Virus record (IMG/VR): IMGVR_UViG_3300025697_000031
Coordinates: 1 to 52,131 of that record
DNA from: a virus
Strand: one strand, 5' to 3'
DNA: 52,131 nt
Shown here: positions 15,710-33,270 of the stretch, piece by piece
How the letters are laid out: every line of letters begins with the position of its first letter
Numbering within the stretch: the first letter of the stretch is position 1
Program-made: the position numbers and the translations under genes
The notes under the pieces: model-generated
Seen by the model: only the letters and a program-made list of their open reading frames with translations
The model's database searches: none
What the model was told of the DNA's origin: nothing

Positions 15710-16423
15710 ATGAGCGAGATTAGAGATTTAACCGGCCAGCGATTTGGAAGGTTAGTCGTTATAGAGCCTACTAACATGAGAAAAGATTGTGGCGTTGTAT
15801 GGAGATGTCGATGCGACTGCGGCGCACTCGCTCTCGTCACTAGCCCGCATCTTACCACAGGTGGGACAAGATCATGCGGGTGCCTTAGAGGAGAGTTGCG
15901 TAAACGAGACTTAACTGGGATGAGGTTTGGAAGATTGGTAGCCATAGAGCCTACCGACAAGAGGGTTAATGGTAGCGTTGTTTGGAAGTGTAGGTGTGAT
16001 TGCGGAAATTTTGCATATATCCCTGTGGCTAGTCTTGTTGCCGAGCTTACAAAATCATGTGGGTGTCTGCATAAAGACGTTATGAGTACTAGGAAAGGTC
16101 CGCTAAATCCTAATTGGAACCCAAATAAAACAGACGACGATAGGCATTCTGATCGAAGCAGTCCAAAATACTATGAGTGGCGTCAAATGGTTTATGAAAG
16201 AGATTTGTTTGTGTGCCAAAAATGTGGAAAATTACGTGGAAAACTAAACGCGCATCACATTCTAGGATTCACAGACAACCCAGGATTGCGCTTTGAATTA
16301 AATAATGGCGTGACGCTCTGCGATGAGTGCCATAAGAAATTCCACCGTATTTACGGGAGACATTCAACAGAAGAAATGTTCCTAGAGTGGATAGGTGACG
16401 AATGTCTTTCTGGCACGACTTGA
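15710..16423 (+). CDS. HNH endonuclease with two zinc-ribbon repeats (copy 1)
   Basis: 237 aa. Two tandem units (residues ~6-60 and 67-121) of the form LTGxRFGRLVxIEPT ... WxCxCDCG ... SCGCL bind zinc and probably DNA. The C-terminus (~155-225) is an HNH nuclease: C169-x2-C172, AHH 181-183, NGVTLCxxCH 199-208. Such proteins are free-standing homing-type endonucleases; no intron or inteth is evident. Two further copies occur at 31413 and 42003. Its last codons overlap the -35 box of the promoter at 16420, implying insertion beside or adaptation to that promoter. Confidence 0.85.
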   Translation: MSEIRDLTGQRFGRLVVIEPTNMRKDCGVVWRCRCDCGALALVTSPHLTTGGTRSCGCLRGELRKRDLTGMRFGRLVAIEPTDKRVNGSVVWKCRCDCGNFAYIPVASLVAELTKSCGCLHKDVMSTRKGPLNPNWNPNKTDDDRHSDRSSPKYYEWRQMVYERDLFVCQKCGKLRGKLNAHHILGFTDNPGLRFELNNGVTLCDECHKKFHRIYGRHSTEEMFLEWIGDECLSGTT

Positions 16424-16448
16424 CGGAAGGGTGGAAATGTGCTATACT
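16397..16448 (+). promoter_or_regulatory. promoter with GAC-N4-GTC box
   Basis: GACGAATGTC at 16397-16406, 13 nt, TTGACG at 16420, 17 nt, TATACT at 16443. Likely drives the gene at 16470, the RNA modules and the Ro60 gene. Confidence 0.9.
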
Positions 16449-16469: not shown

Positions 16470-16712
16470 ATGAAAGAAACGATGCGATTGCTTTTTGGAA
16501 TTGACAACTTTGTAGATACAGCTGAACGTGCTGGTATCAGAGAAGGCGATTCGAATGCGTTTGATATTGCAAACATCGTCACTACGGCCAGATTTGATGG
16601 CATTATCAACGATGTTGAGATGGCGATGCTAATGTATTGCGCTGGCTATCTCCACTCTGTGAATTTAGCTAGAGAAGAACCTATGTCTTTGTTCGAAATT
16701 GATAGCGATTAG
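16470..16712 (+). CDS. small acidic helical protein, 80 aa, family member 1
   Basis: GAGGAGG precedes the ATG at 16470; a GTG at 16395 is in frame but would sit upstream of the promoter's start site. Helical, with a C-terminal segment EMAMLMYCAGYLHSVNLA. Similar ends occur in the products at 18637, 18990 and 19359 (ALMLAEAEGYTSAF, AMLMADLAGFSYG), defining a four-member paralogous family around the tRNA and Ro60 genes. Function unknown. Confidence 0.7.
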   Translation: MKETMRLLFGIDNFVDTAERAGIREGDSNAFDIANIVTTARFDGIINDVEMAMLMYCAGYLHSVNLAREEPMSLFEIDSD

Positions 16713-16756: not shown

Positions 16757-16840
16757 AGGCACCAGCTGCAGGAATGACGGTTACTTCTATCTTACAGAAC
16801 GCCTTAATTGGCATACCCGTCTCCGCTCGTTGCGGTGCTT
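16757..16840 (+). ncRNA. structured RNA module 1, candidate Ro60-associated (Y-like) RNA
   Basis: 84 nt closed by AGGCACC/GGTGCTT (7 bp, one G-U). The 5' strand is followed by AGCTGCAGGAATGACGGTTA, the conserved element of all four modules, and the 3' strand is preceded by GTTGC. Inner hairpins AAGATAG-type and CCGC/GCGG are also possible. No ORF. Confidence 0.7.
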
Positions 16841-16847
16841 TAAGATT

Positions 16848-16947
16848 AGGGACTAGCTGCAGATTGCGGATACTCCTAAGAAATCTGGATGTTTGGTGGA
16901 AACTCTTGGCCGAGCCTGACATCCAGATATCGAATATTGCAGTCCTT
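16848..16947 (+). ncRNA. structured RNA module 2, candidate Ro60-associated (Y-like) RNA
   Basis: 100 nt closed by AGGGACT/AGTCCTT, extendable to 9 pairs. Conserved 5' element AGCTGCAGATTGCGGATACT and 3' element TCGAATATTGC. Contains an internal perfect 9 bp hairpin TCTGGATGT/ACATCCAGA. Confidence 0.7.
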
Positions 16948-16956
16948 GAAACATGC

Positions 16957-17040
16957 GAGACACTAGTTGTAGATTACGGATACTTCTTCTAATGAAACTG
17001 GCTACAAGCCAATAACCGTGGTCGAATGTTACAGTGTCTC
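16957..17040 (+). ncRNA. structured RNA module 3, candidate Ro60-associated (Y-like) RNA
   Basis: 84 nt closed by a perfect 8 bp stem GAGACACT/AGTGTCTC. Conserved 5' element AGTTGTAGATTACGGATACT, internal hairpin TGGCT/AGCCA, and 3' element TCGAATGTTAC. Confidence 0.75.
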
Positions 17041-17047
17041 AAATTAT

Positions 17048-17118
17048 GCTCCTAGCTGAAGAGTACGGTTACTTCTTATATTGGATAAAAAAACACCGTT
17101 CTCGCGTGTTGCAGGAGC
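17048..17118 (+). ncRNA. structured RNA module 4, candidate Ro60-associated (Y-like) RNA
   Basis: 71 nt closed by a perfect 6 bp stem GCTCCT/AGGAGC. Conserved 5' element AGCTGAAGAGTACGGTTACT, internal hairpin AACAC/GTGTT and 3' element TCGCGTGTTGC. Ends about 50 nt before the Ro60 start codon. Confidence 0.7.
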
Positions 17119-17168
17119 TAAAGATGTAGTTGCTGCACAATTATGTGCAAGCTGAAAAGGAGGGAATT

Positions 17169-18506
17169 ATGCAGACGAACAGAAAGGTTACAGGTTTTGC
17201 GCCAAGGACTCACGAAGGCGCTGTGGTAAATAGAACTACAGCAGAACAGGACTTGGTTAGGTCTGTCCTTTCATGCATGCTATTCGAAGACACGTTCTAT
17301 GAGTCAGGAGAAAGCATTGCTGAGAGAATTACCAGTTTAGTCAAGAATGTCGAGCCTGAGTTTGCTGCCAATCTTGCTGTAACAGCGAGGACTGATTACA
17401 ATTTGAGGCATGCGCCTCTCTGGTTGATCGCCTCATTGCTTAAGGACAAGAAGAACAACAGCCTTATCAGGGACTTGGTTTACAACGTAATCCAGCGTCC
17501 TGACGAGCTAGGCGAGATTCTTGCTATGTTCCTTGGTGATTCCGCGAGCGACCCGCATAAGAATAAGTCTATCCCTAGGCAATTAAGACTTGGTATTGCT
17601 GATGCGTTCACCAAGTTTGACGCCTACAGGCTAGGCAAGTATAACCGCAAGGATCGTGCTGTAACGCTTCGAGACGCTATGTTTATCTCTAGGCCAAAGC
17701 CAAAGGATGAAGAGCAAGCAGCTGTCTTCAAGAGGTTAGCAGACGACACTCTTGAGTCTCCGGACACCTGGGAAGTCGCATTGTCAGGTGGAGCCAGCAA
17801 GAGGGAAACCTTCGAGAGGCTAATGGCAGAGAACAAGCTTGGTGCGATGGCCGCCATCAGAAACCTGCGTAACATGACAGAAGCAGGCATTGATACTTAC
17901 AAGATCAAGGAATACCTACTGTCGTTGAACGTTAGTAGAGTTTTGCCTTTCCGTTTCTACGTTGCGGCAAAGATTGAGCCAGTTTTCGAAACTGAGCTAG
18001 AAACCTTGATGCTTAGGGCTTTGGAGTCGCAGCCTAAGTTGAAAGGCAAGACTAGACTGCTCGTTGACACGTCTGGATCTATGCAGACGACCATCTCCGG
18101 AAGGTCGGTGGTTACCGCACAAGAAGCTGGCGCTGTGTTTGGTTCTATGATCAGGGAGTTAGGAGAAGAGGTAAGAGCCTTCTCGTTTGCTTCTACTACG
18201 ATTGAAGTTCCTGCACGTAGAGGTTTCGCGTTTGTAGATTCATTCAGTTCTGGGCAAGTTGGACACGGGACTGACTTTCAGCAAGCTTACAGATTTGCTA
18301 AGAAAGCTGCTCCAGGATTTGACAGGACGATCTTTGTCTCTGACATGCAGTCCCGGTCGAATGTTCCTGCTCCAGATGGAAGAGGCTATATGATGGATGT
18401 CGCGTCCTACGAGAATTCTATCGGATATGGCCCATGGGTTAATATTTGTGGCTTCTCAGCTTCGGCTCTTAAGTGGATGGTAGAGTACGAACAAGGATTG
18501 AGTTAA
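17169..18506 (+). CDS. TROVE-domain Ro60/Rsr-like RNA-binding protein
   Basis: 445 aa; start at 17169 preceded by AAGGAGGG (the in-frame codon at 17130 has no site). Residues ~1-280 are the helical-repeat TROVE ring (for example ANLAVTARTDYNLRHAPLW); residues ~295-440 are a von Willebrand A domain with a complete MIDAS: D300-x-S302-x-S304, T near 369 (GHGTD) and D near 391 (VSDMQS). Ro60 proteins bind small Y RNAs and misfolded RNA ends, and in bacteria the Rsr orthologue works with Y RNAs and nucleases in RNA decay and maturation. Four structured RNA modules lie immediately upstream, the expected place for partner RNAs. A phage copy may protect or recycle the phage tRNA pool. Confidence 0.9.
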   Translation: MQTNRKVTGFAPRTHEGAVVNRTTAEQDLVRSVLSCMLFEDTFYESGESIAERITSLVKNVEPEFAANLAVTARTDYNLRHAPLWLIASLLKDKKNNSLIRDLVYNVIQRPDELGEILAMFLGDSASDPHKNKSIPRQLRLGIADAFTKFDAYRLGKYNRKDRAVTLRDAMFISRPKPKDEEQAAVFKRLADDTLESPDTWEVALSGGASKRETFERLMAENKLGAMAAIRNLRNMTEAGIDTYKIKEYLLSLNVSRVLPFRFYVAAKIEPVFETELETLMLRALESQPKLKGKTRLLVDTSGSMQTTISGRSVVTAQEAGAVFGSMIRELGEEVRAFSFASTTIEVPARRGFAFVDSFSSGQVGHGTDFQQAYRFAKKAAPGFDRTIFVSDMQSRSNVPAPDGRGYMMDVASYENSIGYGPWVNICGFSASALKWMVEYEQGLS

Positions 18507-18511
18507 AATTA

Positions 18512-18543
18512 GGTGGCGGGTTGCGACCTGCCACCAACTTTAT
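18512..18543 (+). terminator. rho-independent terminator-like hairpin
   Basis: 10 bp stem GGTGGCGGGT/ACCTGCCACC (one G-U) with TGCG loop after the Ro60 gene, followed by AACTTTATAT. T tract is short, so read-through into the tRNA genes is possible. Confidence 0.7.
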
Positions 18544-18549
18544 ATACAT

Positions 18550-18623
18550 GTTGTGGGTGGCCGATTGGCAAGGCACCAGGTTGTGGTCCTGGCTCAATGC
18601 GAGTTCGAATCTCGTCCCATAAC
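18550..18623 (+). tRNA. tRNA-His(GTG)
   Basis: Acceptor TTGTGGG/CCCATAA plus G-1 (18550) opposite C73 (18623), the histidine identity pair. Anticodon stem CCAGG/CCTGG with loop TTGTGGT; T arm GCGAG-TTCGAAT-CTCGT. Confidence 0.9.
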
Positions 18624-18636
18624 CAGGGGTGATGAA

Positions 18637-18972
18637 ATGAGCGAGACTACAACAGAAGCGAATGAAGCGATAAAAAAAGTTCTCAACATATTGATGCCGC
18701 CAGAAGATGAACTTGATCAGATGATAGACGACTTCATTCCAGAATTCATTGAGTTAGCTGCTAATAACAGCACTGAAGAAGAATGGATCGAATGTTTCAA
18801 TAAATACGTTCTGAAGTATCAGAAACACTTACCGGCTGTTTGTTTCATGATTATCAAGTACATCGGATTCACTGAAGGATATGACGAAATTTTTGAAGAG
18901 CTGCCTCCAGAAATTGCAGAGGCCTTGACAAGTGAGAACCTTTCTGATATGATTGATGAGTACGATTTATAG
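18637..18972 (+). CDS. acidic helical protein, 111 aa, family member 2
   Basis: ATG at 18637 preceded by AGGGGTG. Strongly acidic and helical. Segment AVCFMIIKYIGFTEGYDEIF matches the C-terminal family pattern also present at 16470, 18990 and 19359. Longer than its relatives by an acidic C-terminal extension (ENLSDMIDEYDL). Lies between tRNA-His and the next family member. Function unknown. Confidence 0.7.
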   Translation: MSETTTEANEAIKKVLNILMPPEDELDQMIDDFIPEFIELAANNSTEEEWIECFNKYVLKYQKHLPAVCFMIIKYIGFTEGYDEIFEELPPEIAEALTSENLSDMIDEYDL

Positions 18973-21184: not shown

Positions 21185-21246
21185 GGCAAGAGTATCTCAG
21201 TGGTAGAGCGTTTTTCATGCGCTGGTTCGATTCCAGCCTCTTGCCT
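21185..21246 (+). tRNA. truncated tRNA-like gene, ~61 nt, anticodon arm reduced
   Basis: Acceptor GGCAAGAG/CTCTTGCC pairs over 8 bp, the D arm CTC-AGTGGTA-GAG and T arm GCTGG-TTCGATT-CCAGC are normal, but only GTTTTTCATGC lies between D and T arms where about 22 nt are expected. It can form at most a 3-4 bp stem (GCG/CGC). It cannot decode normally; either a decayed tRNA or a tRNA mimic. Confidence 0.7.
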
Positions 21247-22612: not shown

Positions 22613-22762
22613 ATGGAAGACAAACTTAGATGTGTAGAAAGACTGTTAGAGACCATTGAGAGAGATGGCATTGAGATGTCGCAAGAAGTACTCGATGGTT
22701 ATTCATGGCTAGTCTGTGGTTGTAGCGCGAGCAAAGCTAAAGAATTACAAATGCAGGAGTAG
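22613..22762 (+). CDS. small protein, 49 aa, wedged between two tRNA genes
   Basis: ATG lies 3 nt after tRNA-Arg; the only ribosome binding sequence is GAGG in the tRNA's own acceptor strand. Its last codons and stop lie inside the next tRNA gene (TAG at 22760). Helical start (EDKLRCVERLLETIERDG) then a C-x-C segment (WLVCGCSASKA). Function unknown; expression would compete with tRNA processing. Confidence 0.5.
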   Translation: MEDKLRCVERLLETIERDGIEMSQEVLDGYSWLVCGCSASKAKELQMQE

Positions 22763-22821
22763 CTCAAATAGAGAGGTCGAATTGTATTGACCGGATGCGG
22801 GTTTAACTCCCGTCTCCTGCA
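22753..22821 (+). tRNA. irregular tRNA, probably Thr(TGT)
   Basis: Acceptor GCAGGAG/CTCCTGC and T arm GCGGG-TTTAACT-CCCGT are good, but the D loop lacks GG and the anticodon arm GGTCG/TGACC encloses an 8 nt loop AATTGTAT. TGT after a U33 is the most likely anticodon; GTA is an alternative. Possibly degenerate. Confidence 0.6.
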
Positions 22822-23762: not shown

Positions 23763-23768
23763 TAAATA

Positions 23769-23840
23769 TGTCCTTGTGGCAGAATGGAGATGCACCGGTT
23801 TTCGACACCGGCCAATGCAGGTTCAAATCCTGTCGAGGAC
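23769..23840 (+). tRNA. tRNA-Arg(TCG)
   Basis: Acceptor GTCCTTG/CGAGGAC identical to the other arginine tRNA, D stem GCA/TGC, anticodon stem CCGGT/ACCGG with loop TTTCGAC, T arm GCAGG-TTCAAAT-CCTGT. Confidence 0.9.
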
Positions 23841-23857
23841 TCAGAAAGGGGAGATAT

Positions 23858-24484
23858 ATGGACGAGGAAAAGAACCAACCAACCGCTTTGGGAAGTGGTT
23901 TATGCGTTACGCCTAAACCTAAAACCGGAAAAACGTTTGGAGATGTTGAAAAACCCAAGCTTGTAAAGATTCTGAATTACGGCCACCCAAAACTGCGCGA
24001 GGTTGCGAATGAAGTTACCGAGCTTAGTCCTTTCGATGACATCTTAATCGATGACATGATGAAGGCAGTAGCCTCATTCCCCGCCCTAGGAATTGCTGCG
24101 ACACAGTTAGGGCGTAACGTAAGAATCATTATCGTTAACACGATTGCAGAGATAATCCCGATCATTAACCCGAAGATAGTTGAATTTTCTCAGGAAGAAT
24201 CCTCTATAGCCGAAGGGTGTATGAGTATCCTAGGAGCGACTGAGGACGTCGAAAGATCTGACAGGGTTGTCGTGGAAGGCCTTGACGCAGATATGAGAGA
24301 AGTGCGTTACGAATGGTCTGGAATGATTGCCCATATCGCACAACATGAGATTGACCATCTTGATGGAGTAATGATGGTGGACCATCTGAGAGAATACAAG
24401 AGAAACAAGATGCTGAAGAAGCACAGGAAATTCATTAGAGACAAGCGCATGCCGGTACATTCATACCAGATTGCGCTTAAGTAA
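23858..24484 (+). CDS. def: peptide deformylase
   Basis: 208 aa; ATG at 23858 has AGGGGAG upstream, the longer frame runs back through the tRNA. All three family motifs are intact: GIAATQ (78-83), EGCMS (119-123) and HEIDH (163-167), giving the Cys and two His metal ligands plus the catalytic Glu. Removes the N-formyl group from nascent proteins at the ribosome exit. An N-terminal extension of ~30 residues precedes the usual 'ILxYGHPxLR' start. Phage deformylases are known to support synthesis of particular proteins; here it sits between two tRNA genes in the translation-related block. Confidence 0.95.
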   Translation: MDEEKNQPTALGSGLCVTPKPKTGKTFGDVEKPKLVKILNYGHPKLREVANEVTELSPFDDILIDDMMKAVASFPALGIAATQLGRNVRIIIVNTIAEIIPIINPKIVEFSQEESSIAEGCMSILGATEDVERSDRVVVEGLDADMREVRYEWSGMIAHIAQHEIDHLDGVMMVDHLREYKRNKMLKKHRKFIRDKRMPVHSYQIALK

Positions 24485-24603: not shown

Positions 24604-26775
24604 ATGCCCAAACCTTACGCAATTACAAATGAGGTGCAGTCAACATTGGCTAGCGCTTGGACCAGACAGGACCAGTCTGAACAATCAGATGTCGTCCTTA
24701 CTAGTGCAGCGGACTTCGATTCCGGTGGCGGGTACGCAAGAATTGGCGGAAGGGAAAGCTTCGCGCTTGTAGAATACACTGGAATTACAACCAACACACT
24801 CACCGGCGTTATTGCCTGTACGTTAGGCGTTGTTGTCAGTTCAGCAGACACGGAGAAAGAATGGCCTGCGCTTACAACTGTTAAACGATCAGCCGTTGCC
24901 GAAGATCTGCAAGACACAAGAAACTTCCAAGACTACGGACTAAGCCCAATGGTTATTACCGGATGTGAGATATCCGAAGGTACTAACGCAGGAACATACA
25001 AAATATCAGCTGGCACACTAGCGTTCCGGGATACAGAACTTGATCCTACATCGCCTCTTCATTTGAATAGTATTACAGAACAGGACAACCAAGCAATAAC
25101 AGCTGCTGATACAACGTACTTCGTTGTCTTGTCCTACGATGGAGATTCTACTCCAACTGTTTCTTTAGCTGTAACCTATGCCGGGGACAATAGACAGATT
25201 CAACTTGGCAATGTGAGAAAAGATGCATCTGACAACGTCCACTTTAATAACGGTGGATTCAGATTCCAGAATGCTGCATTAAAGCTGTCTCGACGTAACC
25301 GAGATATCAACAAACTCATTCTTGCTTCAGGTTGTACTATTGCATGGCAAGCTACAAATGAATTAACAATGGCTGCTGGCGTAGCCTATGTAGGAATCGA
25401 AAGGCATACACCATTTTCAGCTGGCGCTTATGATTCATCAGTGGGTAAGTTTACTTATTGCTGGAGAATTTCTGATGTGTGGCAATACACAGCCGATTCT
25501 ACTGTAATCAGTAATTTGTACTATGATGATAACACTGATGGTACGGGCCACCCAGGCGGAGACTTAGCCAACAAAGCTTATGGAGTCCATTGGGTTTATC
25601 TTCATCCGGACGACGAGCATGTCTACATTGTTTATGGCAGAGATTCTTACTCTCTAGCTGAAGCGAACCTTGCCAATCCTCCAGGTGACTTACCACCACT
25701 TATTTCAGACTTCGGAATCCTTATTGGTAAGATCATTCTCCAAGAAGGAGAAACGGATGCATTCGATGCTGTCCAAATGTCAACAGATACTGAATTTGTT
25801 GGTAGCGGCGCTTCTTCTCATAGCAGCCTTTCGGGGCTAACAGAAGGAGACGACCACACTCAGTACACATTGAAGTCACTGTGGGATGCGTACACGCTAA
25901 TAATGGCTACGTCTGACGATACGCCAATTGCGCTAACTGTACCAGAGCAAACGCTTGTAGGGCGAATAACAGCTGGCACAATTGATGCTCTTACTGCTAC
26001 TGAAGTTAGAACATTGATAGGGGTCGCTGACGGAGCGGATGTAACAGGAGATAACGCACCACAAGCGCATAAAGATTCTCACGACCCAGAAGACGGAGGA
26101 GACGCACTAGACACAGCTGCTGCTGCAGAAATATCTGCTGTTGTTGCCGCTGGTGTTGGCACTTCTAGTTCACTGGCAAGGGCTGACCATATTCATGCAA
26201 TTATTCATGCGATTACAGATAACCATATTGTAACTATTGATGGCTCTCCGAATGACGATGAGTTTGCTAGATTCACAGCAGCGGGATTAGAAGGTTTGAC
26301 AGTAGCTGAGGCAATTACAGCATTGTTAGGTGCTGCGTTGCCTGAGAATACATCTATACAACTAGACCCAGCCCTAAGCGCCGACGGTAAATACTCTGGA
26401 ATTACTGAAACGGGAACGGCTGGCGCTACGCTTGCCTTTGGAGACTTGTGCTATTTTGCAGTCGCTGATAGCAGATGGGAACTTGCTGATGCCACTGTAG
26501 TTGCAACTTCGAAAGGAAGGCTAGGTATTTGTGTCTTAGCGGCAACTGGAGATGCCGAAGCAACTACGATGCTAACGTATGGAAAAGTTAGAGCAGATAC
26601 TGCTTTCCCGACGTTCACAATTGGTGCGCCTGTATTCGTTAGCGAAACTGCTGGGGACGCAACATCAACGATACCTACCAAGGCAACAGATGTTGTTGTC
26701 AGGATTATCGGAGAAGCTGTCACCGGGAACGTGCTGTTCTTTAAGCCTGATGGGGCATACGTTGAATACGTTTAG
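24604..26775 (+). CDS. tail fibre or appendage structural protein, 723 aa
   Basis: GAGGAG precedes the ATG; a lone TATAAT at 24581 could start the transcript. Low-complexity, Thr/Ala/Asp-rich beta sequence typical of fibres. Residues ~400-420 include HSSLSGLTEGDDHTQYTLKS, a motif frequent in phage fibres and appendages; residues ~590-723 (ALSADGKYSGITETGTAGAT ... VFVSETAGDATSTIP) match the C-terminal capsid- or fibre-associated domain seen in many siphoviruses. First of a run of appendage genes. Confidence 0.75.
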   Translation: MPKPYAITNEVQSTLASAWTRQDQSEQSDVVLTSAADFDSGGGYARIGGRESFALVEYTGITTNTLTGVIACTLGVVVSSADTEKEWPALTTVKRSAVAEDLQDTRNFQDYGLSPMVITGCEISEGTNAGTYKISAGTLAFRDTELDPTSPLHLNSITEQDNQAITAADTTYFVVLSYDGDSTPTVSLAVTYAGDNRQIQLGNVRKDASDNVHFNNGGFRFQNAALKLSRRNRDINKLILASGCTIAWQATNELTMAAGVAYVGIERHTPFSAGAYDSSVGKFTYCWRISDVWQYTADSTVISNLYYDDNTDGTGHPGGDLANKAYGVHWVYLHPDDEHVYIVYGRDSYSLAEANLANPPGDLPPLISDFGILIGKIILQEGETDAFDAVQMSTDTEFVGSGASSHSSLSGLTEGDDHTQYTLKSLWDAYTLIMATSDDTPIALTVPEQTLVGRITAGTIDALTATEVRTLIGVADGADVTGDNAPQAHKDSHDPEDGGDALDTAAAAEISAVVAAGVGTSSSLARADHIHAIIHAITDNHIVTIDGSPNDDEFARFTAAGLEGLTVAEAITALLGAALPENTSIQLDPALSADGKYSGITETGTAGATLAFGDLCYFAVADSRWELADATVVATSKGRLGICVLAATGDAEATTMLTYGKVRADTAFPTFTIGAPVFVSETAGDATSTIPTKATDVVVRIIGEAVTGNVLFFKPDGAYVEYV

Positions 26776-26787
26776 CTGAGGTGTAAT

Positions 26788-28344
26788 GTGCAAGAACTAA
26801 AATCAAGAAGTTTTATAGATACCTTACGTACTAAAGATAGTGCGATTACAAAAGATGGTTTCGTAAAGAACTATAAACACGAAACTAGATCTGTAGTAAT
26901 TGAAAAAAGCGACAAAAGCTCAATGATCGACATGTCTCTGAAGTCTTCGTACAAGATGATGGTTGGGGCTGGGAAATCCGTCAGGGTGGCAGAGATACGA
27001 TTGAACGACTGGACTGGGAAACAAGACCTGTTTGATGTACTTGGTTTCTACAACAGAAAAGGCAAGCGTAGCAAGATGTCTAAGGCGTTCACTCTGAAGT
27101 ACGCTGAGGACAAAACTGTAACTGTAACCGAACCAATACCAGACGGGAACGGCAAGGAGTTTAGTTTTGACGTAGTTCGGCCTGATTGGAATAATGCCAT
27201 TACGTTCAAAAAATTAAGTGACCTACCGCACAAAGACATTTCCATCGGCATTTACACAGAGACGGCGATTGGCGAAAAGGTAGAGTGGCTTCCAACCGTT
27301 GATGGATTCGACATATATGAGTGGGCTGACTATGACGTTACACAGATAGACAGCCTTGAACATGATACTGTTAATGGGTCCTTCAACTCTCTCGTAATGA
27401 TCGACGCCACCCACTTCATCCTGGCATATGCAGGAACTGACTATGACGGTTTCATCAAGACATTCAGCATAGACGGAAGCTACGACAATATTACGCAGAT
27501 AGACAGCATTGAACATGATGCTGCTTACGCGTACTACAGCTCTCTCGTAATGATTGACGCCACCCACTTCATCCTGGCATATACAGGCGCTGGCTATGAC
27601 GGTTTCATCAAGACATTCAGCATAGACGGAAGCTACGACATTACAGAGATAGACAGCCTTGAACATGATACTGTTAATGGGTCCTTCAACTCTCTCGTAA
27701 TGATCGACGCCACCCACTTCATCCTGGCATATACAGGCGCTGACAATGACGGCTTCATCAAGACATTCAGCATAGACGGAAGCTACAACATTACAGAGAT
27801 AGACAGCATTGAACATGATACTGTTAATGGAGGCTACAACTCCCTAGTAATGATTGACGCCACCCACTTCATCCTGGCATATACAGGCGCTGACAATGGC
27901 GGTTTCATCAAGACATTCAGCATAGACGGAAGCTACGACAATATTACGCAGATAGACAGCCTTGAACATGATGCTGCTTACGTGTTCTACAGCTCTCTCG
28001 TAATGATCGACGCCACCCACTTCATCCTGGCATATGCAGGCGATGGCGGTTTCATCAAGACATTCAGCATAGACGGAAGCTACAACATTACAGAGATAGA
28101 CAGCATTGAACATGATACTGTTAATGGAGGCTACAACTCCCTAGTAATGATTGACGCCACCCACTTCATCCTGGCATATACAGGCGCTGACAATGACGGC
28201 TTCATCAAGACATTCAGCGTTGAAGAGCCAATAACCTCTAGCATCAAATCAATCAACGGAGTAGCAATCGCAGACATCAAGTCAATCAACGGAGTAGTAA
28301 TCGGAGACATCAAGCAATTCAATGGAGTATCGAACGTCTCATAA
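26788..28344 (+). CDS. tail fibre with six near-identical propeller-type repeats, 518 aa
   Basis: GTG start (GAGGTG upstream). Residues 1-180 form a unique attachment domain. Residues ~185-477 are six repeats of about 50 residues with the core SLVMIDATHFILAYTG and GFIKTFSIDGSY, likely blades of a six-bladed beta-propeller. Repeats are also nearly identical at DNA level (27343-28220). The C-terminus (SIKSINGVAIADIKSINGVV, ~482-501) is the IKxINGV motif found at ends of many phage tail proteins. Probably a receptor-binding or virion surface protein. Confidence 0.75.
   Translation: MQELKSRSFIDTLRTKDSAITKDGFVKNYKHETRSVVIEKSDKSSMIDMSLKSSYKMMVGAGKSVRVAEIRLNDWTGKQDLFDVLGFYNRKGKRSKMSKAFTLKYAEDKTVTVTEPIPDGNGKEFSFDVVRPDWNNAITFKKLSDLPHKDISIGIYTETAIGEKVEWLPTVDGFDIYEWADYDVTQIDSLEHDTVNGSFNSLVMIDATHFILAYAGTDYDGFIKTFSIDGSYDNITQIDSIEHDAAYAYYSSLVMIDATHFILAYTGAGYDGFIKTFSIDGSYDITEIDSLEHDTVNGSFNSLVMIDATHFILAYTGADNDGFIKTFSIDGSYNITEIDSIEHDTVNGGYNSLVMIDATHFILAYTGADNGGFIKTFSIDGSYDNITQIDSLEHDAAYVFYSSLVMIDATHFILAYAGDGGFIKTFSIDGSYNITEIDSIEHDTVNGGYNSLVMIDATHFILAYTGADNDGFIKTFSVEEPITSSIKSINGVAIADIKSINGVVIGDIKQFNGVSNVS
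27343..28220 (+). repeat. six in-frame ~150 bp tandem repeats
   Basis: Units begin near 27343, 27493, 27643, 27790, 27940 and 28087. The variable part of each unit is the stretch just before SLVMIDATHF (TVNGSFN, AAYAYYS, TVNGGYN, AAYVFYS); the rest is almost invariant even at synonymous sites, indicating recent duplication or gene conversion. Confidence 0.85.
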
Positions 28345-31397: not shown

Positions 31398-31412
31398 AGG
31401 GAGCGATAATTG

Positions 31413-32105
31413 ATGGACAGTAGGATACTTGACTTGACAGGACAAAGATTCGGGAAGTTAATTGTCGTTAATCTTACAGAAAAAAGAAATTCTTCCGGCA
31501 ATGTTGTTTGGAGATGCCAGTGTGATTGTGGGAATTTTGTCTATGTTGCTAGCAGCGACCTTATTAGGGGGCAAAAATCTTGCGGATGTGAAAAAGCTAG
31601 AGATATAACTGGAATCAGGTCTGGCAGGCTTGTTGCGGTTAAACCAACCGAAAGAAGAAATTCTTGTTCAGAGGTAATATGGTTAGCAAAGTGCGATTGC
31701 GGGAATTTTGTGTATGTTGCAGGAAGAGACTTAACTAGAAAACACACGAAGTCTTGTGGCTGTCTTAGTAAAGATATTATGAGTGCTAAAAAAGGCCATC
31801 TTAACAATAACTGGAACCCTAAATTGACTGATGAAGAAAGAGTACATGGTCGTTGTGTTCCTGGCTACTCAAAATGGCGATTTGAAGTTTTTGAACGTGA
31901 CGGCTTTACGTGCCAAAAATGCGGAGATAGCACTGGCGGGAATCTTAACGCTCATCATATTGATAGTTATGCTGACAATCCAGAATCTCGCGTTGAGATT
32001 AGTAACGGGGTAACTCTTTGCGAGGAATGCCACAAAGACTTCCATCATATTTACGGCAATCATTCAACAAGAGAAAAAGTAGAAGAATGGTTAGATTCAA
32101 CGTAA
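31413..32105 (+). CDS. HNH endonuclease with two zinc-ribbon repeats (copy 2)
   Basis: 230 aa, same architecture as copies at 15710 and 42003: two LTGQRFGKLIVV/ITGIRSGRLVAV...CxCDCG...SCGC units, then HNH with CQKCG, NAHHI, NGVTLCEECHKDFH. Start at 31413 (GGGAGCGATAATTG upstream); a TTG just before is ignored. It interrupts the appendage gene cluster. A free-standing mobile endonuclease is the best explanation. Confidence 0.85.
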   Translation: MDSRILDLTGQRFGKLIVVNLTEKRNSSGNVVWRCQCDCGNFVYVASSDLIRGQKSCGCEKARDITGIRSGRLVAVKPTERRNSCSEVIWLAKCDCGNFVYVAGRDLTRKHTKSCGCLSKDIMSAKKGHLNNNWNPKLTDEERVHGRCVPGYSKWRFEVFERDGFTCQKCGDSTGGNLNAHHIDSYADNPESRVEISNGVTLCEECHKDFHHIYGNHSTREKVEEWLDST

Positions 32106-32945: not shown

Positions 32946-33270
32946 GTGGGTGACATGGTATCGATTGGTGCGAGAAATGTTCAGGTGCTAGGCAACATTA
33001 ACAATAACCGAGAACAATCAAACAAACGTTATTTACGACGAGTATTTAACTGCTTTCTCTGCGGGGATAGTTACCTTCGAGAAAAGTATCGACTATAGCT
33101 ATATCAACTAGCAAGCTTCGCAATAACCTAGCTGATTAACAACCGCGAATAGCAGGCGGCGAACTTTGCCAGTCCTAGTAACCGGCTGCGACTTAAAGAC
33201 TGGAGATTCCTAGTGGCATCCTGCCAAAGAACGCAACAACACGCGGGTTCGAATCCCGCCACCTACACCA
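32946..33270 (+). ncRNA. ssrA: tmRNA (trans-translation RNA)
   Basis: 5' end GTGGGTGACATGGTATCGAT and 3' end GGGTTCGAATCCCGCC...CCTACACCA form the tRNA-like domain: acceptor GTGGGTG/CACCTAC, T arm GCGGG-TTCGAAT-CCCGC, CCA encoded. Conserved internal pieces include AGGTGC after the 5' domain and GACTTAAAGACTGG before the 3' domain. The mRNA-like part (about 32990-33090) is A/C-rich, but none of the three frames ends in the usual -LAA type tag, so the tag frame is not assigned. It rescues stalled ribosomes; a phage copy would supplement or reprogramme the host system. Confidence 0.9.

What the first reader, a model, noticed from the sequence alone, without database searches (positions are those of the whole stretch)
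16757..17118. Tandem array of four structured RNA modules directly upstream of a phage Ro60 gene
Four noncoding units (16757-16840, 16848-16947, 16957-17040, 17048-17118) are each closed by a different 6-8 bp terminal stem (AGGCACC/GGTGCTT, AGGGACT/AGTCCTT, GAGACACT/AGTGTCTC, GCTCCT/AGGAGC), are separated by 7-9 nt, start with a conserved AGCTGNAGANTRCGGWTACT element and end with (TCGNN)TGTTGC before the 3' stem strand. Complete sequence change with preserved pairing in all four terminal stems is strong covariation. Ro60/Rsr proteins act with Y RNAs usually encoded beside them. A multi-copy phage Y-like RNA set would be a new RNP system.
Basis: partly seen in the sequence, partly recalled or inferred. 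Interest (0 to 1): 0.95.

Follow-up and report, generated by a model that had tools for sequence, protein, structure and literature searches.

The report
Phage array of four Y RNAs
This phage carries four small structured RNAs just in front of its Ro60 gene; they are almost certainly Y RNAs, the known small-RNA partners of Ro60 proteins, here in a multi-copy set without the usual tRNA look-alike part.

Summary
In detail: four closed RNA units lie at 16757-17118, 50 nt before an intact Ro60 (TROVE) gene, same strand. The interpretation (Ro60-partner, Y-like RNAs) is strongly supported. A covariance model trained without the window finds three of the four units. In 82 non-redundant phage Ro60 loci a model of this RNA gives 235 hits in 75 loci, all on the Ro60 strand, 229 within 1.2 kb of Ro60. 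A motif scan that used no protein found 78 stretches; 62 hold Ro60, 56 of them just downstream. Relatives carry the same head in short units (median 70 nt) and in units with tRNA-like arms (median 133 nt), i.e. YrlA-type Y RNA; the window's four are all short. So it is not a new RNP system: Y RNAs beside Ro60 in bacteria and phages were reported in 2014 (recalled; cited in papers seen). Under-described: arrays of two to eight units are the rule; the window has an unusual bulged A; and, in seven related loci including crAss001, a circularly permuted form has real tRNA ends and the Y head in place of the anticodon arm. Function in infection is untested.

The parts
16420..16448 (+). sigma70-like promoter TTGACG-17-TATACT with TG before the second hexamer, candidate promoter of the operon
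   Evidence: 10 of 12 matches; four promoter-like sites found in the region against 2.7 expected, so weak alone
16470..16712 (+). small ORF (80 aa from ATG 16470) between promoter and array; no PHROGs match
16757..16840 (+). Y RNA unit 1; terminal stem 16757-16763 / 16834-16840, bulged A 16764, 2-bp helix 16765-16766 / 16832-16833
16848..16947 (+). Y RNA unit 2, the longest, with a long apical hairpin; most diverged
   Evidence: found by R1; missed by R2
16957..17040 (+). Y RNA unit 3; terminal stem 8 bp, bulged A, 2-bp helix GU/AC
17048..17118 (+). Y RNA unit 4; terminal stem 17048-17053 / 17113-17118, bulged A 17054; closest to the family consensus
   Evidence: (E 4e-12 with the window-free model)
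17155..17164 (+). AAAAGGAGGG, likely ribosome-binding site of the Ro60 gene
   Evidence: sequence
17169..18506 (+). phage Ro60 (TROVE) protein, 445 aa, ATG start behind the ribosome-binding site
18512..18535 (+). terminator-like hairpin (10 pairs, 7 G-C) that would end the operon
   Evidence: two found, 2.0 expected in shuffles, so weak alone

Best explanation
The array encodes four short Y RNAs, the structured RNA partners of the Ro60 protein encoded 50 nt downstream. SHOWN by sequence: each unit has a terminal stem, a single bulged nucleotide, a 2-bp helix, the YGNAG / UU internal loop and a conserved UACU element, and u1, u3 and u4 a second helix that covaries in the family; the same head occurs beside nearly all the related phage and bacterial Ro60 genes examined, mostly in tandem, on the Ro60 strand. 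INFERRED: the operon is transcribed from about 16420-16448 as one precursor, the four units are cut out at the short spacers (7-9 nt), and each is bound and protected by the phage Ro60 through the terminal helix, bulge and internal loop, as metazoan and bacterial Y RNAs are. INFERRED, less sure: the differing apical inserts make the four RNAs interchangeable gates or adaptors for one Ro60 ring, each presenting a different surface to host RNA-processing enzymes (a PNPase-like exonuclease would probably have to come from the host), so that the phage can steer turnover of structured RNA during infection. The confidence given is for the identity as Ro60-partner Y RNAs; for the adaptor step alone it is about 0.35.
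For: Ro60 identity: PF05731 E 8.7e-21, phrog_850, AlphaFold model pLDDT 83.6 whose 13 PDB matches at E up to 0.001 are all Ro60/TROVE structures, among them Thermus phage phiLo Ro60 9l5y, Xenopus Ro with RNA 1yvp and Deinococcus Rsr 2nvo. RNA association: 50 model hits at E up to 1e-3 in 20 phage records (3.0 Mb), 49 within 2 kb of Ro60 and all 49 on its strand, in a zone that is 3.6% of the sequence; 235 hits in 75 of 82 phage loci; 155 hits in 42 of 42 bacterial loci, all on the Ro60 strand (loci counted by eye). RNA-first scan: 62 of 78 stretches hold Ro60, 56 just downstream on the same strand. Structure: sequence-only units pair their own terminal stems 5 of 5 in 147 of 213 cases against a shuffled mean of 13.5, maximum 22; helix 2, not used for selection, is 89% paired with 6 of 7 pairs changed on both sides. 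Bridge to known Y RNA: units of about 130 nt with the same head carry T and D arms, as YrlA does (YrlA described in PMC8394870, passages). 0 of 20 phage records show an RNase PH / PNPase domain at E up to 0.001.
Against: No RNA or binding data exist for this phage. No Rfam family reaches its threshold on any window unit. The bulge is A here, U in 203 of 213 units of the set, C in metazoan Y RNAs (PMC4030889), so this head may not bind like the others. Unit 2 lacks a clean helix 2 and is missed by the window-free model. Seven of 82 phage loci give no R1 hit. At least one 68 kb record (G019) has several such units but no recognisable Ro60. The multi-adaptor step rests only on the diversity of the inserts.
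Confidence: 0.9

Rival explanations
1. The array is a cis-acting leader: Ro60 binds the hairpins in its own mRNA and regulates its own synthesis; the units are not released as separate RNAs.
For: 198 of 235 phage hits lie within 1.2 kb upstream of Ro60 on the same strand; unit 4 ends 50 nt before the start codon.
Against: 31 of 235 hits lie downstream of Ro60; units are separately closed, copy number ranges 1-8, and units stand between tRNA genes in a record without recognisable Ro60. Not exclusive with Y RNA function.
Confidence: 0.08
2. The RNAs are Y RNAs but act mainly as decoys or inhibitors of host anticodon nucleases or tRNA-processing enzymes that attack phage tRNAs, rather than as adaptors for RNA decay.
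For: The phage carries many tRNA genes and a tmRNA; PMC7790460 (passages) proposes that YrlA's tRNA-like domain could competitively inhibit an anticodon nuclease; tRNA-armed forms are common in relatives.
Against: None of the four window units has T or D arms, so tRNA mimicry cannot explain this array.
Confidence: 0.12
3. The units are degenerate or unusual tRNA genes of the phage tRNA cluster.
For: The array lies in a tRNA-rich region; some relatives' armed units are annotated as tRNA or score as tRNA in Rfam.
Against: No tRNA call on any window unit by ARAGORN or Rfam; the head with bulge and 2-bp helix is not a tRNA feature; association is with Ro60.
Confidence: 0.01

Closest known systems
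Bacterial and phage Y RNAs encoded beside rsr / Ro60, including Y RNAs without a tRNA-like domain (e.g. YrlB of the Salmonella rsr-yrlBA-rtcBA operon; that it lacks the domain is recalled)
   Same: Terminal stem pairing the two ends, bulged nucleotide near the Ro60-binding head, position beside Ro60 on the same strand, tens of nucleotides to about 100 nt, more than one RNA per locus.
   Different: Four tandem copies, all short; bulged A and GC/GC or GU/AC second helix instead of the U bulge and GG/CC of most relatives; no RtcB found in the 71.6 kb record of the same phage.
YrlA, the tRNA-mimicking bacterial Y RNA
   Same: The head (stem, bulge, 2-bp helix, YGNAG, UACUUC, CGnnUGUU) is shared with long units in related loci that carry T and D arms.
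   Different: None of the four window units has a T arm or D arm.
Ro60 of Thermus phage phiLo (PDB 9l5y) and Deinococcus Rsr (2nvo)
   Same: Same fold by model comparison (E 2.6e-18 and 1.9e-12).
   Different: About 22% and 19% identity; in a quick tree of 124 proteins the window protein is a long branch without a supported sister.
Putative Y RNAs of Listeria phage CKA15 (PMC12282133, passages)
   Same: Highly transcribed noncoding regions within about 2 kb upstream of an Rsr-like gene, suggested there to be Y RNAs.
   Different: Not tested there and not compared by sequence here.

Membership tests
Y RNA (Ro60/Rsr-associated small RNA) | encoded beside a Ro60 gene | tested here: met
   50 nt upstream of Ro60 in the window; in relatives 229 of 235 hits within 1.2 kb
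Y RNA (Ro60/Rsr-associated small RNA) | 5' and 3' ends pair in a terminal stem | tested here: met
   four stems of 6-8 bp with different sequences; family test 147 of 213 against 13.5 shuffled
Y RNA (Ro60/Rsr-associated small RNA) | bulged nucleotide and short second helix at the Ro60-binding end | tested here: met
   single bulge plus 2 bp in all four units; but the base is A, against U in most relatives and C in metazoa
Y RNA (Ro60/Rsr-associated small RNA) | bound and stabilised by Ro60 in cells | not testable with these tools
   needs pull-down or gel shift
YrlA-type Y RNA | tRNA-like domain with D, T and acceptor arms | tested here: not met
   no T or D arm in any of the four units, no tRNA call
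Ro60 / TROVE protein | TROVE and vWA sequence profile | tested here: met
   PF05731 75 bits against cut-off 23; vWA_Ro60 19.6 bits, under its cut-off 27.7
Ro60 / TROVE protein | Ro60 fold | tested here: met
   Foldseek, TM normalised by query 0.67, 0.71, 0.74 and E 2.6e-18, 2.5e-14, 2.6e-14 for 9l5y_B, 1yvp_A, 9nep_A
Ro60 / TROVE protein | MIDAS DxSxS motif of the vWA domain (motif recalled) | tested here: met
   D300, S302, S304 invariant in 32 aligned proteins
RYPER (Ro60 - Y RNA - PNPase machine) | Y RNA tethers Ro60 to PNPase | not testable with these tools
   no phage-encoded RNase PH domain found in 20 records; host enzyme unknown
rsr-yrlBA-rtcBA RNA repair operon | RtcB ligase encoded alongside | tested here: not met
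   no RtcB match in the 71.6 kb record of this phage; 5 of 20 phage records have one

The most novel reading that the evidence does not exclude
Phages keep sets of up to eight interchangeable Y RNAs for a single Ro60, and some, like this one, use only short forms without a tRNA mimic, so that Ro60 works as a programmable ring whose partner or target is chosen by which Y RNA is loaded. In related phages the same two modules (Y head and tRNA elbow) are built in both circular orders, once with Y-stem ends and once with tRNA ends, which would give the same RNP two different maturation routes; arrays without Ro60 could commandeer the host's Ro60.
Probability: 0.25. Interest if true: 0.7.

Novelty: new member of a known kind. 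Interest (0 to 1): 0.5.

Why it matters
It shows that phage Ro60 genes as a rule come with multi-copy Y RNA arrays that no Rfam Y RNA family picks up (18 loci and the window scanned) and that are in part annotated as tRNAs, and supplies covariance models and culturable phages (CcrColossus with eight units, crAss001 with the tRNA-ended form) in which Y RNA function could be tested genetically. If sets without tRNA mimics are real, the tRNA-like domain is not an obligatory part of a prokaryotic Y RNA set.

Tried and rejected
Rfam at gathering threshold gave only tRNA and tmRNA on the window and only tRNA on 18 loci, no Y RNA family; some of those tRNA matches are armed Y RNA units (L011 2316-2383, L088 4351-4414) or the tRNA-ended form (L028, L059; L091). 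At E up to 10 the array gave one weak microRNA match, taken as chance. Folding energies alone were not decisive. A first regular expression written from memory of bacterial Y RNA found three of the four window units and little that was convincing elsewhere; it was replaced by a structural descriptor. Blastn at the DNA level found only two Brevundimonas phages, inside the Ro60 gene. A pattern for the window's own variant found only the same phage and one weak, Ro60-less stretch. The protein 3' of Ro60 (18553-18972) was not profiled: I gave the wrong frame twice. Key papers on bacterial Y RNA (Chen 2014, Sim and Wolin 2018, Sim 2020) are not held.

Mended on checking: my first count of loci without any tRNA-armed unit, 16 of 64, was too high; Rfam, ARAGORN and arm searches outside the R1 hits showed armed, probably armed or tRNA-ended RNAs in seven of the 16, leaving 9 of 64 (L003 = window, L009, L021, L022, L041, L051, L064, L070, L095). 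That check exposed the circularly permuted form.

Limits: the R1 training set (51 units) holds the four window units and 47 from the loci searched, so hits there are partly by construction; R2 was made without the window to answer this. Units in A4 and A6 were chosen by a descriptor that demands terminal-stem pairing, so only helix 2 is independent evidence. The descriptor also gives background: in 124 loci 39 matches on the opposite strand, 3 inside Ro60 and 41 in the remaining flanks. Of the 78 RNA-first stretches only 46 close under the strict descriptor. Arm detection uses simple patterns and flanks of 1.2-1.5 kb. R3 (six training RNAs) also matches plain tRNAs at about 28-52 bits and reads across neighbouring armed units up to 74 bits, so only hits with a closed acceptor stem were accepted. 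Loci were the best 80 of 480 viral and the best 80 of 238 bacterial relatives; 52 of 176 loci were dropped as near-duplicates.

Full report
WHAT IS THERE. The window is a virus record of 52,131 bases with terminase, portal and head protease genes, 14 tRNA genes by ARAGORN and a tmRNA. L003, from a 71.6 kb IMG/VR contig, matches it over 9.3 kb at 99.99% and is taken as the same phage. Each has a terminal stem of 6-8 bp whose sequence differs from unit to unit, one bulged A, two more pairs, a TGNAG / TT internal loop and the CGG(A/T)TACT element; u1, u3 and u4 also show a second helix, u2 only weakly. Fifty nt after unit 4, behind a good ribosome-binding site, starts a 445-aa protein.

THE NEIGHBOUR IS Ro60. 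PF05731 TROVE matches at 75 bits and phrog_850, RNA-binding protein, at E 1e-39. The AlphaFold model (mean pLDDT 83.6) has 13 PDB matches at E up to 0.001, all Ro60/TROVE structures: the TROVE domain 9kop, Thermus phage phiLo Ro60, Xenopus and human Ro60, Deinococcus Rsr. D300, S302 and S304 of the vWA metal site are invariant among 32 aligned proteins. In a quick tree of 124 proteins the window protein is a long branch without a supported sister.

THE RNA FAMILY. I fetched Ro60 loci from IMG/VR (the best 80 of 480, and seven before), nine named phages and bacteria (the best 80 of 238), and reduced 176 to 124 non-redundant loci. A descriptor (stem of at least 5 bp, one bulge, 2 bp, YGNAG ... 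TT) gave 203 matches within 1.2 kb upstream of Ro60 (85 + 9 + 109) against a mean of 5.8 in Markov-shuffled copies of those stretches; 27 within 1.2 kb downstream, 3 inside Ro60, 41 in the remaining flanks and 39 on the opposite strand of the whole loci. To avoid circularity I also picked units by sequence motif alone: 213 units in 100 of 124 loci; their own terminal stems pair 5 of 5 in 147 cases, against a shuffled mean of 13.5 and a maximum of 22 in 500; the 2-bp helix pairs in 192, shuffled mean 160.8, maximum 168; within loci holding several units, 123 of 173 pair with their own partner and 46 of 374 cross combinations pair. On 45 units with none from the window, helix 1 pairs by construction, but helix 2, never used for selection, pairs in 89% of cells and 6 of its 7 pairs change on both sides.

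ASSOCIATION WITH Ro60. Model R1 (51 short units) gave 235 hits at E up to 1e-3 in 75 of 82 phage loci, all on the Ro60 strand: 198 within 1.2 kb upstream, 31 within 1.2 kb downstream, 6 further upstream; of the seven loci without a hit two hold almost no upstream sequence. Copies per locus: 1 in 3 loci, 2 in 22, 3 in 27, 4 in 13, 5 in 7, 6 in 2, 8 in 1 (CcrColossus); 123 of 160 gaps between neighbouring hits are 40 nt or less, with a median of 7. All 42 bacterial loci have hits, 155 in all, all on the Ro60 strand (loci counted by eye). Over 20 phage records (3.0 Mb) 50 hits reach 1e-3, and 49 lie within 2 kb of Ro60 on its strand, a zone of 3.6% of the sequence; three records (crAss001, RHph_Y65, Streptomyces phage Satis) have none at that level. 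Going from RNA to protein, a pattern scan of IMG/VR found 78 stretches; 62 hold Ro60 within the stretch, 56 of them downstream on the same strand at 84-1331 nt, but only 46 of the 78 sites close under the strict descriptor. Five more stretches come from records with a TROVE gene elsewhere. Of the other 11, seven show no R1 hit and look like chance matches; four do.

THREE FORMS. R1 hits fall in two length classes: 148 without recognisable arms, median 70 nt, and 87 with a T or D arm, median 133 nt. In the long form the order is Y head 5' strand, T arm, acceptor-like hairpin, D arm, Y head 3' strand, as read in Xanthomonas phage 10KY502B; this agrees with YrlA as described in PMC8394870 (passages): a terminal stem that holds Rsr and a domain like the D, T and acceptor arms of tRNA. 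The shared head is what makes the short units Y RNAs too. All four window units are short, and R1 shows no further unit in the 71.6 kb record at E up to 1.

A third form came out of that check. Nine RNAs in seven of the 82 phage loci (L016 = cr106_1, L017 = crAss001 twice, L027 twice, L028, L045, L059, L091) have a 7-of-7 paired acceptor stem as ends and a T arm, eight of them also the GCTCA D-arm motif; where the anticodon arm would be stand the Y head's 3' strand, a short loop and the Y head's 5' strand. In five of them the script closes the Y stem over 4-6 nt, once as GAAA in each of L028 and L091. Three seem to encode CCA after the acceptor (L028, L091, L027 4087-4218; read). Six trained model R3; L045 (100 bits), L027 3951-4079 (88 bits) and L017 4377-4521 (44 bits) did not. 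This is YrlA circularly permuted. In single-sequence folds the acceptor and T arms form in all six training RNAs, the D arm in five; energies are ordinary (z -0.7 to -2.4). The window has no such RNA: its two R3 hits are plain tRNAs.

THE WINDOW VARIANT. The bulge is U in 203 of 213 motif-defined units; three of the five with A are the window's (its fourth unit is not caught by the motif), and its second helix is GC/GC or GU/AC where 164 of 213 have GG/CC. A model trained without the window finds three of four units and misses u2, so u2 is the weakest member.

MECHANISM. A promoter-like site (16420-16448) and a terminator-like hairpin (18512-18535) would frame one operon: small ORF, four Y RNAs, Ro60 (both are weak evidence, near the number expected in shuffles). 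That the RNAs are cut out and bound by Ro60 at the head is inference from Y RNA biology: the bulged base is the primary Ro60 site in metazoa (PMC4030889, passages), and YrlA tethers Rsr to PNPase in RYPER (PMC8394870, passages). None of 20 phage records shows an RNase PH / PNPase domain, so an exonuclease partner would probably be the host's. That different inserts serve different partners is a guess.

WHAT IS KNOWN. From memory, the abstract of Chen et al. 2014 (RNA 20:1715) reports likely Y RNAs near Ro60 in over 250 bacterial and phage species, at least one per species with a tRNA-like domain; the paper is not held. PMC12282133 (passages) cites it for mycobacteriophages and suggests Y RNAs beside an Rsr-like gene in Listeria phage CKA15. 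PMC7765460 (passages) states that several phages have YrlA. PMC7824862 (passages) mentions a TROVE protein in some jumbo phages and its tRNA-like partner in cellular organisms. Nine searches listed no paper whose title or abstract start describes tandem phage Y RNA arrays or a circularly permuted Y RNA; the lists were capped and the library lacks most subscription papers, so this is weak. Hence for the window: a new member of a known kind, with an unusual all-short set.

Noticed in passing
L028 2697-2827, L091 1518-1648, L027 3951-4079 and 4087-4218, L059 4638-4771, L045 105-237, L016 4036-4183, L017 4122-4271 and 4377-4521: Circularly permuted YrlA: RNAs with tRNA acceptor ends, D and T arms (D motif in eight of nine) and the Ro60-binding Y head in place of the anticodon arm, beside phage Ro60 genes including crAss001; three seem to encode CCA. 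Possibly a new RNA form and the strangest thing seen here.
   Followed up: partly
L230 1815-1906 and 6194-6926 (record G019, 68.5 kb): Five strong Y RNA hits between tRNA genes (23 called by ARAGORN in L230) in a phage record with no recognisable TROVE gene: an orphan Y RNA set, possibly for the host's Ro60.
   Followed up: partly
record G012 25982-26048 (L202): A single strong Y RNA hit (E 5e-14) in a 49.7 kb phage record without a TROVE match.
   Followed up: partly
record G011 28034-28124: A Y RNA hit (E 1.6e-7) 36 kb from the Ro60 gene of the same record, the only such distant hit at E up to 1e-3 in 20 records.
   Followed up: no
L010 2278-2352, L011 2316-2383, L014 1664-1731: Y RNA regions labelled tRNA-Ser, tRNA-Thr and tRNA-Gln in deposited phage records (Gurke, 10KY502B, CcrColossus); the last two lie inside R1 hits, the first was judged by eye.
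   Followed up: partly
window 32946-33270: A phage-encoded tmRNA gene (Rfam RF00023, 54.6 bits).
   Followed up: no
window 21186-21245 and 22753-22821: Two tRNA matches by Rfam that ARAGORN does not call; short, with ordinary D-then-T order by eye, perhaps unusual or degenerate tRNAs.
   Followed up: partly
window 23768-24484: A peptide deformylase gene (PF01327, E 1e-37) in the phage.
   Followed up: no
window 15710-16423 and 31410-32105: Two HNH endonuclease genes matching the same family (phrog_374), one just before the Y RNA operon, one about 0.8 kb before the tmRNA.
   Followed up: no
window 17121-17160: A small hairpin (TGCACA / TGTGCA, by eye) between unit 4 and the Ro60 ribosome-binding site, perhaps controlling translation.
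   Followed up: no
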